This document shows, piece by piece, positions 1-6,763 of a DNA stretch of 6,925 nucleotides. The notes under the pieces are model-generated. The model was not told the origin of the DNA. It did not search any database and was given only the letters and a program-made list of their open reading frames with translations. Within the stretch, counting starts at the first letter, position 1; every line of letters begins with the position of its first letter. Source of the stretch: Deltaproteobacteria bacterium (GTDB lineage Bacteria; Desulfobacterota; Syntrophia; Syntrophales; UBA5619); the NCBI GenBank assembly GCA_026388345.1, contig JAPLJY010000287.1, positions 1 to 6,925 on the forward strand, read 5' to 3'. Made by a program: the position numbers and the translations under genes.

Positions 1-315
1 CGAATTGCAGGGATCATGGCGGCGAAGCAGACCGGCGGGCTCATTCCCCTGTGCCATCCGCTCGAACTCACGGGTATCGAGGTCCTCTTTACGTGCGATC
101 CCGCAGCGGGCGAGGTCGCGATCGAGGCACAGGTCAAAACGGTCAGCAGAACGGGCGTCGAGATGGAGGCCATGACGGCCGTCGGCGTCGCCGCGCTCAC
201 GATTTACGACATGTGCAAGGCGGTCGACCGGGAGATGGTCCTCACGGATATTCGCTTGATCGGCAAAGAGGGCGGCAAGAGCGGCGCCTTTGTCAGACGG
301 GAACCATTGGTTTGA
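1..315 (+). CDS. moaC: Cyclic pyranopterin monophosphate synthase MoaC, 3' part
   Basis: MoaC converts the 3',8-cyclo-GTP product of MoaA into cyclic pyranopterin monophosphate, an early cytoplasmic step of molybdenum cofactor synthesis. The reading frame is open from base 1, so the 5' end lies outside the window. By comparison with E. coli MoaC (161 aa) roughly the first 58 residues are missing; the ATG at 16 is internal. Visible family signatures are RIAGI..AK at the edge, [41 protein letters not shown] and the C-terminal GGKSGAF. The lysine of MCKAVD (bases 217-219) corresponds to the second catalytic lysine of the family; the first lies upstream. The TGA is at 313-315 and the next gene starts 29 bases on, so the two may be cotranscribed. 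Identification is secure. Confidence 0.97.
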
Positions 316-344
316 AAGCGGGTTCGTTCCCGCCGGGAGAGGAT

Positions 345-869
345 ATGTCGCAGCACGTCTATACGATCAGAAGGGCGTTTCTCATTCCCCTCGGCGTCGA
401 TGCCTTTCTTCTCTTCTGTCTGTTTGTCATCTCGCTGCTGCCGCAGGGTTCAACGACGGAACGGCTTGTATTTGCGTTTTTTTTCTTTCCCTCCTGTTAT
501 CTCTTCCTCGAATGTTTTTTCCGCCGGGTCACGGTGGATGACGGGGGGATTGTGCTCCGGAGGCTGTGGAGAGAAAAGGGGGTTCCCTGGGAGGGGATCA
601 CCCATATCGGAGGTCTCAGTCTCCACAAGAAGGTCTATATCCTGCTGACGACCGTCAGGGGATTTTTCATCGTTTCCAACGCCTATGAGGGATTCTCCGA
701 ACTGACGGAGGAGATCGTTTCTCATGTCGATCTTATAAGGGTGGAAGAAGAGGTCCGTCTGCAGGCAGGGTGCTCCCCGTCGGGGATTGCCCATGTCGCA
801 ATGGCATGGATCGCGGCCGTGTTCATGGTCGGCATCATCCTGATCAAAATGCTGCCTTTTCTGGCATGA
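345..869 (+). CDS. Membrane protein with probable bacterial PH-like domain
   Basis: A 174-residue protein of unknown function. The start is the ATG at 345, preceded by a purine-rich GGGAGAGG at 335-342; the frame stays open upstream, but only as an overlap with moaC in another frame. Two hydrophobic segments lie near the N terminus (about residues 11-32 and 41-59) and a third at the C terminus (about 148-170). Between them is a soluble, beta-rich stretch (about 61-130) with a W-E-x-I motif (PWEGI, 82-86) and alternating hydrophobic strands, resembling the bacterial PH-like domains found in many small membrane proteins. Codons for the second hydrophobic segment include a run of eight T (477-484). 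It could share a transcript with moaC, but nothing links it to molybdopterin synthesis. The gene is well supported; the domain name is an inference. Confidence 0.82.
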   Translation: MSQHVYTIRRAFLIPLGVDAFLLFCLFVISLLPQGSTTERLVFAFFFFPSCYLFLECFFRRVTVDDGGIVLRRLWREKGVPWEGITHIGGLSLHKKVYILLTTVRGFFIVSNAYEGFSELTEEIVSHVDLIRVEEEVRLQAGCSPSGIAHVAMAWIAAVFMVGIILIKMLPFLA

Positions 870-951
870 CGGCCGGGATCTCTTTGCATAAGGCGCTCAG
901 GCGACAAACCGGGAACGGCTTTGCAAAGGGTTAAGATCGCTCCATCCGTTC

Positions 952-971
952 ATTCCCGCGAAATCGGGAAT
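952..971. repeat. dRS3-like 20-bp palindrome (ATTCCC-N8-GGGAAT)
   Basis: The sequence reads ATTCCC, eight bases (GCGAAATC), then GGGAAT. This fits the ATTCCC-N8-GGGAAT form known as dRS3 in Neisseria and also common as dispersed repeats in other proteobacteria. It sits in the 197-base gap between the membrane-protein gene and the Fis-family gene. GCGCAGGCGTGACG at 1007-1020 looks like the other end of the same repeat class (typically CGTCATTCCCGC...GCGGGAATGACG), so the whole element may span about 945-1020 in decayed form. I see no convincing promoter or terminator in the rest of the gap; CTTTGCAAAG at 919-928 is a short perfect palindrome without a U tract. Confidence 0.55.
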
Positions 972-1066
972 CGGGTTTTGGTTTCAGGAACGATCGGGCC
1001 CTGTTTGCGCAGGCGTGACGATATTGCCGGTTATGCACAGCCGTTAAGAAAGGAATCCGCTGATTC

Positions 1067-1375
1067 ATGGTCCTCAACAGGCAGCAATCCGTCGTTGATC
1101 CGGCGGCACGGGAAAGGCGGTCGACCCCGGCCGCCGTGGCGGAAGAGATACTGGAGAAGAAACTCGATGACATCGCCACCATCCTGTGCAAGGCGGAGAC
1201 GGACAAAAGCAGGATCTATGAGGAGGTTATGGCGATGGTGGAGAGGAGTCTCGTCCGGATCGCCCTCCGGCGGTCGCATCACGTGAAGAGCGCGGCGGCC
1301 GCCTATCTGGGGATCAACCGGAACACCTTTCAGAAGAAGATGGTCAGCCTCGGAATCGATCACGATCCGGAGTGA
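1067..1375 (+). CDS. Fis-family DNA-binding protein
   Basis: A 102-residue protein close to the length of E. coli Fis (98 aa). Residues about 50-97 line up end to end with the Fis C-terminal half: IYEEVMAMVERSLVRIAL, then the helix-turn-helix AAAAYLGINRNTFQKKM (about 76-92), which matches the Fis pattern A..LGINR.T..KK. The N-terminal 45 residues are charged and helical and would be the dimerising part. The role is probably nucleoid binding or transcription regulation as a homodimer; targets cannot be inferred. The start chosen is the ATG at 1067. The nearest Shine-Dalgarno-like AAAGGA (1048-1053) is 13 bases away, rather far, so the exact start is less certain than the gene. The next gene follows after 82 bases. 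It is a stand-alone HTH, not attached to a sigma-54 activator AAA+ domain. Confidence 0.87.
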   Translation: MVLNRQQSVVDPAARERRSTPAAVAEEILEKKLDDIATILCKAETDKSRIYEEVMAMVERSLVRIALRRSHHVKSAAAAYLGINRNTFQKKMVSLGIDHDPE

Positions 1376-1457
1376 ACGGCAAGGGGGCGGAACGGTTCCG
1401 GGTGCGGCAGCGGCTCCGGGGGAGCATGGACGGGAAACAGCGAAGAGAGAAAAGTCA

Positions 1458-2723
1458 ATGACCCAGATGAAGCTCCCGGCAGCGGTGGAACGACTCCTGA
1501 TCCGGGGCGTCCGGATGCCCAATCCCTTTTCCGTTGATGTCGGCGAAGAGGTCGATCCGGACCGCATTTCAACGAACGGGGTTGTTTTATACACGGGGAC
1601 GAGGATCTCCGGGGCGAAGACCCTGATCTCCCCGGGGGTGAAACTGGGCGGCGAAACGCCGGTTGCCGTTGCGGATTGCCGGCTCGGCCGGGGGGTGGAG
1701 CTCAAGGGGGGCTTTTTCAGTTCTTCCGTATTTCTCGATCAGGCGAACATGGGGTCCGGCGCCCAGGTCCGGGAGGGGTGCCTCCTTGAGGAGGAGGCGA
1801 ACGGGAGCCATACCGTCGGCCTGAAACAGACCATCCTCTTCCCCTTTGTCACACTGGGCAGTCTGATCAACTTCTGCGACGCCTTTCTGGCCGGTGGCAC
1901 CAGCCGCAGGGACCACAGCGAGGTGGGGAGTTCCTATATCCATTTCAACTTTACCCCCAACCAGGACAAGGCCACCGCCTCCCTGTTAGGCGATGTTCCC
2001 CGCGGCGTGATGCTGAGGGAGCCCCCGATCTTTCTCGGAGGGCAGGGTGGGCTGGTGGGACCGGCCCGGATCGGTTTCGGGACGGTGATCGCCGCGGGAG
2101 AGGTCTGGCGGGGGGATTGCCCCGAGGGGGGAAAACTGCTCCGGGGAGAAGGACAACCGCTCTCCGCAAAGGCTTTTCATCCGGGTCTCTACGGCGACAT
2201 CCACAGCCGGGTGACCAACAATGTCCATTATATTGCGAATCTGTTGGCCCTGAGGCAGTGGTATATCCACGTTCGCCTTTCCTGCCCCGGCGAGCCGGAG
2301 ATGGGGGAGGCGCTCTATCAGGGGGCGCTGGAGATCCTGGATGCGGCTATAGCGGAGCGGCAGGCGCGTTTCAAGGCCCTGGCGGAAAAGATGGGGAAAT
2401 CGTTTGAACTCGGCGAAAGGTTTCTGCCGGAGGAGACCCGCGGGGATGTTCTCCGGCAGCAGCGGGAATTCCGGGAACGGTGGCCGGAGTTGGAAGCCTG
2501 CCTGACGGACTGTCGGGAGGAAGCGGCCGGCCGGAAGGAACGGGACGGATTTCTTGCGAATATGGTCCCCGTCCGGGATGTGCAGGGGAACGATTACATC
2601 CGGACGATCCGTTCCCTGGACCGGGGCGTTTCTTCGCTTGGGACGCTCTGGCTCCAGCGGGTGGTCGCTGCTGTCGCGGAGAGGGCGCTTGCCTGTGTTC
2701 CCTCCTGTCGTGTGAGGTCATGA
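1458..2723 (+). CDS. Left-handed beta-helix protein, GlmU acetyltransferase-like
   Basis: A 421-residue protein. Residues about 25-215 form hexapeptide-type repeats typical of a left-handed parallel beta-helix. The stretch DHSEVGSS (152-159), HFNFTPNQDKATASLLGD (from 162) and VGPARIGFGTVIAAG (about 200-214) parallels GlmU's KANHLSYLGD, AGTITCNYDG..KH and APVRIGDGAYIGAG regions. His153 aligns with the GlmU acetyltransferase histidine. The N-terminal nucleotidyltransferase domain of GlmU (with its GxGTRM loop) is absent. Residues about 240-420 are mainly helical and unlike GlmU. Such proteins are often labelled UDP-GlcNAc pyrophosphorylase-related, but without that domain pyrophosphorylase activity is unlikely; sugar or sugar-phosphate acyltransfer is a better guess. 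The start ATG at 1458 has GAGAGA at 1445-1450, spacing 7. The TGA overlaps an ATG at 2720 (ATGA), and the gene is paired with the downstream GlmS-like gene, suggesting a shared amino-sugar pathway. Confidence 0.85.
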   Translation: MTQMKLPAAVERLLIRGVRMPNPFSVDVGEEVDPDRISTNGVVLYTGTRISGAKTLISPGVKLGGETPVAVADCRLGRGVELKGGFFSSSVFLDQANMGSGAQVREGCLLEEEANGSHTVGLKQTILFPFVTLGSLINFCDAFLAGGTSRRDHSEVGSSYIHFNFTPNQDKATASLLGDVPRGVMLREPPIFLGGQGGLVGPARIGFGTVIAAGEVWRGDCPEGGKLLRGEGQPLSAKAFHPGLYGDIHSRVTNNVHYIANLLALRQWYIHVRLSCPGEPEMGEALYQGALEILDAAIAERQARFKALAEKMGKSFELGERFLPEETRGDVLRQQREFRERWPELEACLTDCREEAAGRKERDGFLANMVPVRDVQGNDYIRTIRSLDRGVSSLGTLWLQRVVAAVAERALACVPSCRVRS

Positions 2724-2768: not shown

Positions 2769-2932
2769 CGGGCTGCAAACAGGCTGTTGAAAAACGCCCA
2801 TCTACGTCGTTTCCCTTATCCTTCGCCGCTCAACGTACCTCAAAGTACGTCTCGCGGCTCAGGATTTCGGGAGCCTTGCATCTGGGCATTTTTGAACAGC
2901 CTTCAAAAAGAGACTTTTCAACGGGCTGCAAA
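2769..2932. repeat. 11-bp direct repeats flanking the MITE-like element
   Basis: CGGGCTGCAAA occurs at 2769-2779 and again at 2922-2932, bracketing the 122-bp inverted-repeat element. The right-hand copy is joined to CTTTTCAACGGGCTG, whose reverse complement resembles the left terminus (AGGCTGTTGAAAA). The true outer boundary may therefore be this position rather than 2902. The direct repeats could be a target duplication or a duplicated element end. Confidence 0.5.
2781..2902. repeat. MITE-like element with 20-bp terminal inverted repeats
   Basis: The left terminus AGGCTGTTGAAAAACGCCCA (2781-2800) and the reverse complement of the right terminus (2883-2902) match at 18 of 20 positions. Inside is a hairpin with perfect arms ACGTAC/GTACGT (2833-2838 and 2845-2850), extended by GCCGC/GCGGC further out. 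The element carries no gene. Its ends and its length of about 120 bp fit non-autonomous dispersed elements seen repeatedly in deltaproteobacterial genomes. It sits exactly in the gap between the beta-helix gene and the GlmS-like gene. It is open in the frame of the downstream gene, so automatic gene calling may translate it as a false N-terminal extension. Confidence 0.85.
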
Positions 2933-2950: not shown

Positions 2951-5900
2951 GTGTCTGTTGAATGCGCCGCGCTGAGGCTTTTCCGGAAGCTCGTCCTTTT
3001 TCTGGCGGAATGCAGGATCCATATCGGGTGCGACCCGCAACGGGTTGAGGCGCCGGCGCTGATCCTCTTTCCCCATTATTCGGCGACCCTTTGCTGCGGT
3101 CTTGCCGGTATCCTGACCCTCCGCCGGAAGACCCAGCCCGCTGCGGCGGGCGTCGACCTGTCCATCCTCTTTTCCCGGGCAGCGCAAAAGAATCTACCGG
3201 TGTTTCTCCGCGGCGCAATTCCCTCGAAGGCATATTTGGGCGGGATCCCGACTCAGGAGGCGATGGAGCGGGAACTTTTCCGTATGAAGGGGGAGGAGGC
3301 CTTCGGGAAGATCTTCTACGATGACGGGGAGGTGCGTCGTCTGACCCTTCTTTCCGACAAAATGAAGGCATTCCTCACGGACGAGGAGATGCTGTTGGAG
3401 GGGCAGGCGGACCGGATTTCGACCGCCGATCTGGAGGCCGTCAACCGCGGCCTGGTTCTGCTCAGAGATCTCGTCTGGGGGCTGGAGCGGGATATTCTGG
3501 ACAACATCGGGCGGATCTGCCGCCTGGCCGGGGTGGAGAGTTCTGCCGGTGTGGCGCCGGAGGCGCTGCCGAAGTACCGGAAAATGAACTTTCTGTTGAA
3601 CGGTCTGGACCGCCTGGAGGTCCGGGGCCGGGATTCGGCGGGGATACAGATCTCCTTCGTTGCTGCGGATGCCGGGGCCTTCGGGGAGTTCATGACCTGT
3701 CTCCGGAAAGACGGGTTTGGCGAGGAGTTGGACCGCCGGATGGCGCCAGGCGATCTTGCCGACGGCTCGATCACATGCTCTCCGGCTGTTGAATGGGGAC
3801 ATGATGCCGCATCGTGTCCCCGGCGAGATTCAAAATCCGCCTTGAGCCAGACCGTCTCCTTCACTTACAAGACCGCCGAGATCATCGGAGAACTGGGCCG
3901 GAACGTTCGGGAACTGAGGCGCCACATCTCAGGGGACCGCCTGTTTCACGACTTCGCCCGCCTCCCGGTGGCCTTCGAGACCGCCTTCACCCACACCCGC
4001 TGGGCGTCCGTCGGATCGATCACGGAGGAGAACTGTCATCCCATCGGGAATTTTACGCTTTCACCGGGAGATTCCCCCGCCGGGGTGCGGGAGAAGCATT
4101 ATCCCGCCTACGGGATCGGACCCTGGACCATCCATGTGGCCTTGAACGGGGACATCGACAACTACCAGTCACTCCGGGAGGCACGTGAGGCGCAAGGGGT
4201 GGCGATCGCGCCGGAGGTGACGACGGATACGAAGATCATTCCCCTGCAGGTTGAAAGCTACCTTCTGGCGGGTCATGATCTGGCCGAGGCGTTCCGGCGC
4301 GCCGTAGGCGATTTCGAAGGCTCCCACGCCATCGCCATGATCAGCAATGCGGAGCCGGGAAAGATCTTCCTGGCCCTGAAGGGGAGCGGCCAGTCGATTT
4401 ACATCGGGATCACCCCCGACCGGTATCTCTTCTCCTCGGAGCTCTACGGCCTGGTGGAGGAGACCCCCTTCTTCATCAAGATGGACGGTGAAAGGCCCGC
4501 GCGTCCGGAGAAACCGAAGGCCACGGGACAGATTGCCATCCTTGATCAGGATGCCCCCGGGGGGGCGGCCGGCATCCGGGGGCTCTTCTATGACGGGACG
4601 CCGCTTCCTTTCGGCGAAGACGCGGTGAAGCGGGCGGAGATGACGACGAGGGACATCGATCGCGGCGACTACCCCCACTACTTCCTCAAGGAGATTACCG
4701 AATCGGCCCTGTCCGTCCGGAAGACCCTCCGCGGCAAATACCGGATCGAGCGGGACGGGGGTACGCAGCGGGCCGTCTTCAATCTCGGCCTCGACATCGT
4801 CCCGGAGGGAATCCGGGAGGCCCTCCGCGAGGGAAAGATCCGGCGGATCGCCGTGATCGGTCACGGGACGGCGGCCGTCGCCGGGAGTTCCGTGGCCGAC
4901 GCGATGGAACGCTGCCTCCGGGGAAGCGGGATTCTTGTGGAGGCCCGGATCGCCTCCGAACTGAGCGGTTTCTGCCTGGAGAATGATCTGCACGATACCC
5001 TGGTCATCCCGATCACCCAGTCGGGGACGACGACGGACACCAACCGCGCCGTGGCGATGGCTGCGGAGCGGGGCGCGAAGGTTATCGCGATCGTCAACCG
5101 CCGCCAGTCCGATATCACGGCGAAGGCGGACGGCGTCTTTTATACCTCGGACGGCCGGGATATCGAGATGGCCGTCGCCTCGACCAAGGCCTTCTATTCC
5201 CAGATTGTGGCCGGACACATCCTCGCTCTCTATCTGTCCCGGCTCCTATCAACCCTCTCCGATGAACGGATCGCGGAGGAGCTCCGCCTGCTGGAATGGG
5301 CGCCGGAGCTGATGGGAAAGGTTCTTGCGGGGAAGGAGGAGATTCGCGGCGTTGCGGAACGGTTGGCGAAGGGAAAGCGTCACTGGGCGGTCGTGGGAAG
5401 CGGACCGAACAAAGCGGCGGCGGAGGAGATCCGGATCAAACTCAGCGAACTCTGTTACCAGACGATCTCCTCCGACGTCGTGGAGAACAAGAAGCACATC
5501 GATCTCTCCGCCGAACCGCTCATTCTTGTTTGCGCCGCGGGGAGTCCGGAAACCGTCATGGGGGACATCGTCAAGGACGCGGCGATCTTCAAGGCCCACA
5601 AATCCGCGGTGGTCGTCTTTGCCGACGAGGGAGAGGAACGCTTCGATGCGATCGCCGATGCGGTGATTCGCATCCCCCGCGCGCCGCTGCCGCTTCCCGT
5701 GATCCTGAACACGCTGGCCGGCCACCTCTTCGGCTATTACGCGGCGTGCAGCATCGATGCCGACGCCCTGTACCTCCGTGCGTTCAAGAGCCGCCTTAAT
5801 CTGATCATGATCGAACAGGCGAAGCGGAACCTTTCCGTCGATGAATGCATCGCCGACGGCCGTCTGCGCCGTCTCGTGAACGATTTCACGGAACGCTTCC

Positions 5901-6763
5901 AACTGAGGAAGAACCGGGGCGCCTTTTCACAAACCGGCGTGCGAACGATCTCCGATCTGATCCTCCTTTTAAAATATGCGGCCGGGAAACTGCCGCTCGA
6001 CGACTTCGAGCATGATTTCCCCGGGGCGGAGGCGCCGGCCTCGCCGATCGACCTGCTGGACATCACGCTCGGCCACGCGGTGGATGAACTCTCTCGGCCG
6101 ATCGATGCGATCCGCCACCAGGCAAAGACGGTGACGGTGGGAACGAGCCGGAAGGAAACGCCGCCCGGCGGCGTCCTCTTCAACATCCTTGCGGAGCTCT
6201 CCTTCTCCGCCAAGTCCCTCCTCAGCACGAATCTCCTTGCCCTCCGCCGGATACAGAAGGCGGTGACCGCCGCCAACGGCTACACCCTCTATGCGGTGAA
6301 TCACATGGATGCCGAGGGAAAACCGGGGGACGATTCAACGATCGAGATCCGTAAGCGGGCGGGCGTTTCCGTCGGGATGCCTTCTCGGGTCGAAAAACCG
6401 GGACTTCTGATGGGGACCAAGAAGGGAATCGTGGCCTCCGGGCGGATCTACGTGGGACAAGGCAAGTCGGACGGCGCGTCCGTTGTGATCATCCCCCTTC
6501 TCGGGGAGGGAGAGCAGGTCCGGAATCTCCTGCTGATCCATGTGACGTTCAACGAGGCGCTCTCCGTCCGCGAACGGAAGGAGCTTTTGGGCGAGCGGGC
6601 GAACGATATCCGGAATCTCATCCAGGAATACAACCTGGCGTGGGACGACCGTTGTCTTGGGGAAATTCCCCTCGGCGTCCTTTTGGGAGAGCCGGTGGAG
6701 GTGATCGCCGGGCAGATCAAGCGGAATCTCGGCCGACCTGCGGAGGGGTGGGGACAGATTTGA
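2951..6763 (+). CDS. Giant GlmS-like protein: glutamine amidotransferase + 2 SIS domains + C-terminal extension
   Basis: About 1270 residues from the GTG at 2951, about twice GlmS (roughly 609). GlmS makes glucosamine-6-phosphate from fructose-6-phosphate and glutamine. The class II amidotransferase part has CGLAGIL (Cys49), RLEVRGRDSAGI (221-232), HTRWASVGSITEENCHP (from 348), NGDIDNY (from 399), TTDTKI and YPHYFLKEI (about 574). SIS1 (about 630-775) has TQSGTTTDT (689-697) and ASTKAF (743-748). SIS2 (about 805-950) keeps equivalents of the GlmS isomerase residues: Glu833 in LSELCY, His849 in KKH and Lys946 in AFKS. Residues about 958-1270 form an extension I do not recognise. About 170 residues separate the Cys motif from RGRDSAGI, against about 20 in GlmS. 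No start codon adjoins Cys49. The alternative start is the ATG at 2720, which forms an ATGA overlap with the upstream stop but would translate the MITE. A GGGGACA repeat encodes the last residues and the stop. Family certain; start and exact product uncertain. Confidence 0.88.
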   Translation: MSVECAALRLFRKLVLFLAECRIHIGCDPQRVEAPALILFPHYSATLCCGLAGILTLRRKTQPAAAGVDLSILFSRAAQKNLPVFLRGAIPSKAYLGGIPTQEAMERELFRMKGEEAFGKIFYDDGEVRRLTLLSDKMKAFLTDEEMLLEGQADRISTADLEAVNRGLVLLRDLVWGLERDILDNIGRICRLAGVESSAGVAPEALPKYRKMNFLLNGLDRLEVRGRDSAGIQISFVAADAGAFGEFMTCLRKDGFGEELDRRMAPGDLADGSITCSPAVEWGHDAASCPRRDSKSALSQTVSFTYKTAEIIGELGRNVRELRRHISGDRLFHDFARLPVAFETAFTHTRWASVGSITEENCHPIGNFTLSPGDSPAGVREKHYPAYGIGPWTIHVALNGDIDNYQSLREAREAQGVAIAPEVTTDTKIIPLQVESYLLAGHDLAEAFRRAVGDFEGSHAIAMISNAEPGKIFLALKGSGQSIYIGITPDRYLFSSELYGLVEETPFFIKMDGERPARPEKPKATGQIAILDQDAPGGAAGIRGLFYDGTPLPFGEDAVKRAEMTTRDIDRGDYPHYFLKEITESALSVRKTLRGKYRIERDGGTQRAVFNLGLDIVPEGIREALREGKIRRIAVIGHGTAAVAGSSVADAMERCLRGSGILVEARIASELSGFCLENDLHDTLVIPITQSGTTTDTNRAVAMAAERGAKVIAIVNRRQSDITAKADGVFYTSDGRDIEMAVASTKAFYSQIVAGHILALYLSRLLSTLSDERIAEELRLLEWAPELMGKVLAGKEEIRGVAERLAKGKRHWAVVGSGPNKAAAEEIRIKLSELCYQTISSDVVENKKHIDLSAEPLILVCAAGSPETVMGDIVKDAAIFKAHKSAVVVFADEGEERFDAIADAVIRIPRAPLPLPVILNTLAGHLFGYYAACSIDADALYLRAFKSRLNLIMIEQAKRNLSVDECIADGRLRRLVNDFTERFQLRKNRGAFSQTGVRTISDLILLLKYAAGKLPLDDFEHDFPGAEAPASPIDLLDITLGHAVDELSRPIDAIRHQAKTVTVGTSRKETPPGGVLFNILAELSFSAKSLLSTNLLALRRIQKAVTAANGYTLYAVNHMDAEGKPGDDSTIEIRKRAGVSVGMPSRVEKPGLLMGTKKGIVASGRIYVGQGKSDGASVVIIPLLGEGEQVRNLLLIHVTFNEALSVRERKELLGERANDIRNLIQEYNLAWDDRCLGEIPLGVLLGEPVEVIAGQIKRNLGRPAEGWGQI
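3791..3821. repeat. REP-like palindrome inside the amidotransferase coding region
   Basis: A near-perfect hairpin, GGGGACATGATGC / GCATCGTGTCCCC with a tiny CC/C loop and one mismatch in the stem, preceded by GAAT. The 31 bases are identical to 6768-6798. Here the repeat lies wholly within the GlmS-like gene and is read in frame as EWGHDAASCPR (about residues 281-291). It falls between the RGRDSAGI and HTRW motifs, where the protein is already longer than GlmS. The reading frame is undisturbed. Confidence 0.9.

What the first reader, a model, noticed from the sequence alone, without database searches (positions are those of the whole stretch)
2951..6763. Oversized GlmS-like enzyme with large insertions and an unrecognised C-terminal domain
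GlmS is normally about 600 residues. Here the same amidotransferase-SIS-SIS order spans about 900 residues because of an insertion of about 150 helical residues right after the Cys motif and a longer RGRDSAGI-to-HTRW spacing. About 310 further residues (from about 958) follow SIS2. Key isomerase and glutaminase residues look retained (Arg351, Asn399, Glu833, His849, Lys946). The extension contains blocks such as RHQAKTVTVGTSR and a strand-rich section around GLLMGTKKGIVASGRIYVG. This may be a sugar aminotransferase with a different substrate or a regulatory domain.
Basis: partly seen in the sequence, partly recalled or inferred. Interest (0 to 1): 0.72.

Follow-up and report, generated by a model that had tools for sequence, protein, structure and literature searches.

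The report
Giant GlmS with extra C-terminal domain
Some sulfate-reducing and syntrophic bacteria appear to make the first amino-sugar building block of their cell walls with a double-sized, deeply divergent form of the GlmS enzyme that carries extra domains, perhaps for built-in regulation, in place of the ordinary enzyme.

Summary
ORF 2951-6763 (1270 aa) belongs to a conserved family (80 loci kept, 41-86% identity). It is most likely the organism's glucosamine-6-phosphate synthase, not a different aminotransferase: the catalytic residues checked match canonical GlmS except Ser303 (Ala), Ser347 (Thr) and His77 (Val). The catalytic C-tail (canonical ...AKSVTVE, Lys603) is the internal motif RHQAKTVTVGT, so the lysine is Lys1059, not Lys946. 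About 111 residues are inserted before it and a ~200-residue domain follows it. In 297 genomes of one phylum, 32 of 33 with a strong match to this domain have no GlmS over cut-off; 233 of 234 with canonical GlmS lack the domain. GlmM and a stand-alone GlmU-like acetyltransferase can lie beside it. With two sister subfamilies it forms its own clade (support 100), 29% identical in the core to canonical GlmS. The C-terminal domain has no Pfam match over cut-off and no PDB sequence match; its model (pLDDT 92) looks PAS/GAF-like, so a sensor is inferred, not shown. An extension (48 residues here) precedes the catalytic Cys in 59 of 60 genes tested, predicting a propeptide.

The parts
2951..6763 (+). 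long GlmS-like gene, 1270 aa, GTG start
   Evidence: Open frame. A possible start at -48 from Cys also occurs in homologues L001 to L006, L008 and L018; GGGAGG lies just upstream.
2951..3094 (+). N-terminal extension, residues 1-48, before the catalytic Cys; predicted propeptide
   Evidence: Conserved (G26 in 77 of 80 rows). Present in 59 of 60 locus genes tested; L019 instead starts ATG-TGC after a ribosome-binding-like site.
3095..3097 (+). Cys49, predicted Ntn nucleophile (canonical Cys1)
   Evidence: Cys49-Gly50 invariant in 80 of 80 rows; aligned with Cys1 of Klebsiella GlmS.
3122..3568 (+). about 150-residue helical insertion after the first strand of the glutaminase domain (about residues 58-206; limits approximate)
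   Evidence: Cys-to-RGRD spacing 173-190 against 26; helical in the model; the structural alignment to E. coli GlmS 2j6h starts at model residue 180 = GlmS residue 9.
3569..4630 (+). rest of the glutaminase domain, with a longer R26-to-R73 segment (about residues 207-560)
   Evidence: GATase_6/7; R225, R350, W351, H363, N399, G400 and D426 match R26, R73, W74, H86, N98, G99 and D123.
4838..5755 (+). isomerase part: two SIS domains (about residues 630-935)
5756..6094 (+). helical insert between the second SIS domain and the catalytic C-tail (about residues 936-1048)
   Evidence: 209 residues from H849 to A1058 against 98 from H504 to A602 in canonical GlmS; mostly helical in the model.
6098..6151 (+). 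internal catalytic C-tail PIDAIRHQAKTVTVGTSR with Lys1059 (canonical Lys603)
   Evidence: HQAKTVTVGT in 80 of 80 rows; aligned with A602-K603 in all 25 canonical, 17 long, 3 'sis' and 5 'acido' rows.
6152..6760 (+). C-terminal domain (residues 1068-1270), predicted PAS/GAF-like fold
1458..2723 (+). neighbouring 421-aa protein resembling the GlmU acetyltransferase half
   Evidence: Weak GlmU hits over model 241-431. Found in 30 of the 80 loci and in 32 of the 33 genomes with a strong C-terminal-domain match against 27 of 264 others.

Best explanation
This is a divergent, enlarged glucosamine-6-phosphate synthase that does the job of GlmS in these bacteria. Glutamine is hydrolysed at Cys49, ammonia is channelled to the two-SIS isomerase site, and fructose-6-phosphate becomes glucosamine-6-phosphate (inferred from conserved residues, fold and gene replacement). 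GlmM, a stand-alone GlmU-like acetyltransferase and a stand-alone uridylyltransferase would carry the product to UDP-GlcNAc (inferred). The 48 residues before Cys49 are most likely a propeptide removed to free the Cys, as in PurF and GltB precursors (inferred). The catalytic C-tail lies inside the chain, between a helical insert and a ~200-residue PAS/GAF-like domain, so that domain is well placed to move the C-tail and act as an allosteric sensor (inferred; ligand unknown, about even odds).
Against: No activity data. Score is well below the GlmS model cut-offs. Ser303 is Ala in all long, 'sis' and 'acido' rows (also in 2 of 25 canonical), Ser347 is Thr in 12 of 17 long rows, His77 is Val. 4 of 20 carriers (G002, G004, G009, G013) have no GlmM over cut-off; G013, the chromosome-level one, also has no acetyltransferase match at E <= 1e-30. 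One genome, G204, has both forms; 31 have neither, and completeness of these genomes is not told. The sensor role rests on a fold prediction without sequence homology and without a Foldseek match at E <= 0.001. The C-tail stretch has pLDDT under 50 in the model (residues 1004-1016).
Confidence: 0.8

Rival explanations
1. A glutamine-dependent ketose-phosphate aminotransferase for another sugar (for example for a surface glycan), not the housekeeping GlmS.
For: Long branch to canonical GlmS and 29% core identity; Ser303 to Ala and Ser347 to Thr; named only 'SIS domain-containing protein' in several NCBI records; G204 has it together with a canonical GlmS gene.
Against: No canonical GlmS over cut-off in 32 of 33 carrier genomes; can be operonic with GlmM and a GlmU-like acetyltransferase. 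Gln348, Ser349, Thr352, Lys485, Glu488, His504 and Lys603 kept in 17 of 17 long rows.
Confidence: 0.1
2. The C-terminal domain is structural (dimer or partner binding, for example holding GlmM or the acetyltransferase) rather than a ligand sensor.
Against: Invariant positions in 80 of 80 homologues (S1145, K1157, D1174, E1226, W1231) would suit a pocket, but could also suit an interface.
Confidence: 0.4
3. The 48-residue extension is not removed; the enzyme uses free ammonia, or the Cys works without a free amino group.
For: No processing data; the extension is itself conserved, more than a discarded tail needs to be.
Against: The glutaminase residues re-checked are invariant in 80 of 80. Sister subfamilies and L019 have Met directly before the Cys. 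PurF and GltB precursors are called self-processing (MEROPS C44).
Confidence: 0.2

Closest known systems
Canonical bacterial/archaeal GlmS (TIGR01135, about 608 residues)
   Different: 29% core identity, separate clade; two insertions in the glutaminase part, about 111 extra residues before the C-tail, a ~200-residue domain after it, and an N-terminal extension
Eukaryotic GFAT-1
   Different: There the inhibitor binds the isomerase domain and linker; absence of a trailing sensor domain and of a propeptide in GFAT is recalled, not tested
PurF / GltB precursors (MEROPS family C44)
   Same: Extension before the nucleophilic Cys (recalled); called self-processing in PMC5753285 (passages read)
   Different: Other enzymes; the extension here resembles a hairpin of the protein's own C-terminal domain (suggestive)
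N-terminal segment of large glutamate dehydrogenase L-GDH180 (7jsr, residues 174-394)
   Different: rmsd 5.0, no detectable sequence homology to 6 L-GDH sequences (hhalign P 0.15)

Membership tests
GlmS (glucosamine-6-phosphate synthase), broad sense | Glutaminase residues Cys1, Arg26, Arg73, Trp74, His86, Asn98, Gly99, Asp123 (list recalled) | tested here: met
   All match in the window and in 17 of 17 long rows, except one alignment gap at Cys1; C49, R225, R350, W351, N399, D426 invariant in 80 of 80
GlmS (glucosamine-6-phosphate synthase), broad sense | Isomerase residues Gln348, Ser349, Thr352, Lys485, Glu488, His504, Lys603 (list recalled) | tested here: met
   All match in 17 of 17 long rows; outside this list Ser303 is Ala and Ser347 is Thr or Ser
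GlmS (glucosamine-6-phosphate synthase), broad sense | Glutaminase-SIS-SIS fold | tested here: met
GlmS (glucosamine-6-phosphate synthase), broad sense | Makes GlcN6P from Fru6P and Gln | not testable with these tools
   Needs an assay; gene replacement supports it
Canonical GlmS equivalog TIGR01135 | Score at or above 418 bits | tested here: not met
   230.2 bits
Canonical GlmS equivalog TIGR01135 | Cys directly after the initiator Met; C-tail at the end of a ~608-residue chain | tested here: not met
   48 residues before Cys49 and 203 after the C-tail
AgaS / FrlB / NagB-II type phosphosugar isomerases | Two SIS domains without a glutaminase domain (recalled) | tested here: not met
   Glutaminase domain present with its residues
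Self-processing Ntn precursors (MEROPS C44: PurF, GltB) | Conserved extension before the nucleophilic Cys | tested here: met
   59 of 60 locus genes tested
Self-processing Ntn precursors (MEROPS C44: PurF, GltB) | Autocatalytic removal of the extension | not testable with these tools
   Needs protein chemistry
PAS/GAF domains (C-terminal domain) | Five-stranded sheet with PAS/GAF connectivity | tested here: inconclusive
PAS/GAF domains (C-terminal domain) | Sequence membership in a curated family | tested here: not met
   Of the 8 Pfam families matched by any of 38 members at E <= 1, none is PAS or GAF and the best E-value is 0.097

The most novel reading that the evidence does not exclude
A third class of GlmS beside the bacterial/archaeal and eukaryotic ones: an amino-sugar enzyme with a built-in ligand sensor that holds the catalytic C-tail, made as a precursor whose N-terminal hairpin copies a hairpin of the sensor and blocks or docks there until processing. 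Cell-wall precursor supply would then be switched at the protein level by a metabolite and by maturation.
Probability: 0.2. Interest if true: 0.85.

Novelty: new variant of a known kind. Interest (0 to 1): 0.62.

Why it matters
GlmS opens the route to the bacterial cell wall and is a textbook ammonia-channelling enzyme (general knowledge). Here part of a phylum appears to have replaced it with a double-sized form that falls below NCBI's GlmS cut-offs, although JGI records already name many copies GlmS. The catalytic C-tail, normally the last residues of the chain, is now internal and tied to an extra domain. [quoted passage not shown] It also predicts a propeptide in a GlmS, which I do not recall being described; the paper searches made here found none.

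Tried and rejected
Different-substrate aminotransferase: rejected as first choice (gene replacement, conserved residues). Sequencing error or fused genes: rejected, the layout is shared by the 80 aligned homologues. Stand-alone copies of the C-terminal domain: a profile search gave 257 hits among 7997 scored candidates (capped) of 5.8 billion proteins. The 120 listed look like contig-edge fragments of the same family, judged only from contig length and source names; some sit on long contigs and were not opened. Homology of that domain to L-GDH: tested with 6 L-GDH sequences, not found (hhalign P 0.15). Extension against C-terminal hairpin: hhalign P 0.00045 over 24 columns against that domain, P 0.0038 and best place against the rest of the protein, but 1 of 300 column shuffles scored higher, so suggestive only. 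Regulatory RNA in the window: no Rfam match at gathering scores. An inverted-repeat search at 2700-2960 found none, though an imperfect palindrome is visible by eye. Ten paper searches: I saw listings only, and passages of three papers; none listed is about a long GlmS of this kind, judged from titles and the starts of abstracts, and most subscription journals are not held. One search scanned a blind stretch of L130 and says nothing about that gene. Not done: residue contacts in the models (coordinates not available), codon-level selection tests, structure of the two glutaminase insertions on their own. Rows dropped: gene L021 (wrong frame picked) and loci without a complete frame of over 1150 codons were left out of the 60 genes.
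Full report
What was found. The window holds an open frame at 2951-6763 (+) for 1270 residues. A GTG start 48 codons before the key Cys agrees with possible starts at the same place in eight homologues (L001 to L006, L008, L018). No whole genome is held for the window. The nearest named relatives are Deltaproteobacteria/Syntrophales metagenome-assembled genomes. The protein scores on GlmS models but below their cut-offs: 230 of 418 bits for TIGR01135, 253 of 381 for NF001484.

A conserved family. One scan of genome contigs confirmed 110 encoding places; the best 80 loci were kept, at 41-86% identity, most titled Deltaproteobacteria, Syntrophaceae/Syntrophales or Desulfobacterales/Desulfobacteraceae, one Acidobacteria. 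A protein search gave 2640 matches, 120 listed; many JGI names are already 'glucosamine--fructose-6-phosphate aminotransferase', several NCBI ones 'SIS domain-containing protein'. The length is conserved, so the insertions are not errors.

Active sites. A residue-by-residue alignment with 25 canonical GlmS proteins, Klebsiella GlmS giving the numbering, shows that the glutaminase residues Cys1, Arg26, Arg73, Trp74, His86, Asn98, Gly99 and Asp123 and the isomerase residues Gln348, Ser349, Thr352, Val399, Ser401, Lys485, Glu488, His504, Ala602 and Lys603 are kept (the list is recalled). Ser303 is Ala, Ser347 is Thr (Ser in 5 of 17 long rows) and His77 is Val. In canonical GlmS the last residues, AKSVTVE, carry Lys603. 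Here the motif is internal: HQAKTVTVGT is present in 80 of 80 aligned homologues, with Lys1059 in the place of Lys603.

The replacement test. Among 20 genomes that carry the long gene, 0 have GlmS over the TIGR01135 cut-off, against 14 of 14 controls; one carrier (G013, CP070694) is titled a chromosome. In 297 genomes of the phylum of G013, 234 have canonical GlmS over cut-off and 33 have a strong match to the C-terminal domain (E below 1e-66). Only G204 has both, so 32 of 33 carriers have no GlmS over cut-off; 31 genomes have neither (Fisher p 3e-24, not corrected for relatedness; completeness is not told). Four weaker matches were not counted as carriers: G025, G062 and G122 are a sister subfamily and G098 a partial copy of it; none of the four has canonical GlmS over cut-off.

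Pathway context. The GlmU-like acetyltransferase gene at 1458-2723 has a relative near the long gene in 30 of 80 loci, many of which are cut by contig ends. It is present in 32 of 33 carrier genomes against 27 of 264 others. Full GlmU over cut-off is present in 1 of 33 carriers (G091) and in 148 of all 297 genomes, hence 147 of 264 others. A separate GlmU N-terminal half scores 248-284 bits in 13 of the 20 first carriers; the other seven score 97 bits or less. GlmM is over cut-off in 16 of 20; G002, G004, G009 and G013 lack it. GlmM lies within 9 of 80 loci. In L125 (the same place as L032) the order is long GlmS, acetyltransferase, GlmM; in L126 (= L066) GlmM is next to it; in L117 (= L057) a PF01182-family gene is next to it. 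tblastn gave further matches to that PF01182 protein at about 30% in L029, L032, L034 and L080 and a short distant one in L008, not examined. Against the simple pathway picture, G013 lacks both a GlmM over cut-off and the acetyltransferase, so its later steps are unexplained.

Evolution. A tree of the shared core puts the long family (support 94) together with two sister subfamilies, 'sis' (G062, G025, G122) and 'acido' (five genomes in the phylum of G018), in a clade with support 100, apart from canonical GlmS that includes an archaeon and a Paenibacillus (support 94). The root is the very distant giant proteins L118/L119, so the root position is uncertain. Both sister subfamilies have the internal C-tail and a trailing domain, and a Met codon directly before the Cys; in L120 and L121 the open frame leaves only six residues before the Met-Cys pair's Cys. 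Hence the N-terminal extension was gained or lost separately from the trailing domain. L019 lacks it within the long family.

N-terminal extension. It is present in 59 of 60 locus genes tested. Only L019 has a start codon directly before the Cys; three others (L022, L049, L054) have one two or three codons before. Class-II amidotransferases use the free amino group of the N-terminal Cys (established knowledge), so removal is expected. A MEROPS paper calls amidophosphoribosyltransferase and glutamate synthase precursors self-processing (PMC5753285, passages). The segment 'IxxGRxPxxVxxPALIxFP' of the extension (consensus) resembles 'IYVGQGKSDGASVVIIPL' in the C-terminal domain; the statistics are suggestive only.

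Verdict. What is shown: architecture, residues, gene replacement, pathway linkage in some loci, separate clade. What is inferred: activity, propeptide removal, sensor role.

Noticed in passing
L118:1118-5650(-) and L119:191-4783(+): Two carrier genomes (G015, G020) also encode a second, still larger GlmS-like protein of about 1485-1510 residues with Met directly before the Cys and an internal PRNRAKSVT motif; in a low-identity alignment several catalytic positions (Arg26, Asp123, Gln348, His504) differ. Function unknown.
   Followed up: partly
window 2777-2925: An imperfect palindromic element (arms near 2779-2803 and 2881-2912, by eye) lies between the acetyltransferase gene and the long GlmS; L008 has an 88% copy at 13483-13594, away from its GlmS gene, so it looks like a dispersed repeat.
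   Followed up: partly
window 1-2723: The upstream order MoaC fragment, 183-aa weakly PH-like protein, Fis-type HTH protein (1067-1375) and GlmU-like acetyltransferase recurs in homologous loci: MoaC matched in 25 and the HTH protein in 26 of the 80 loci. Why a molybdenum cofactor gene sits here is unexplained.
   Followed up: partly
G013 (CP070694): Carries the long GlmS and a stand-alone GlmU N-terminal half but no GlmM over cut-off and no GlmU-like acetyltransferase match.
   Followed up: no
L123:1506-5336(+): G204 is the one genome of 297 with both a canonical GlmS and a strong match to the long form; the long gene is followed by an NAD-dependent sugar epimerase-like frame (judged by eye), so a glycan-specific copy is possible.
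   Followed up: no
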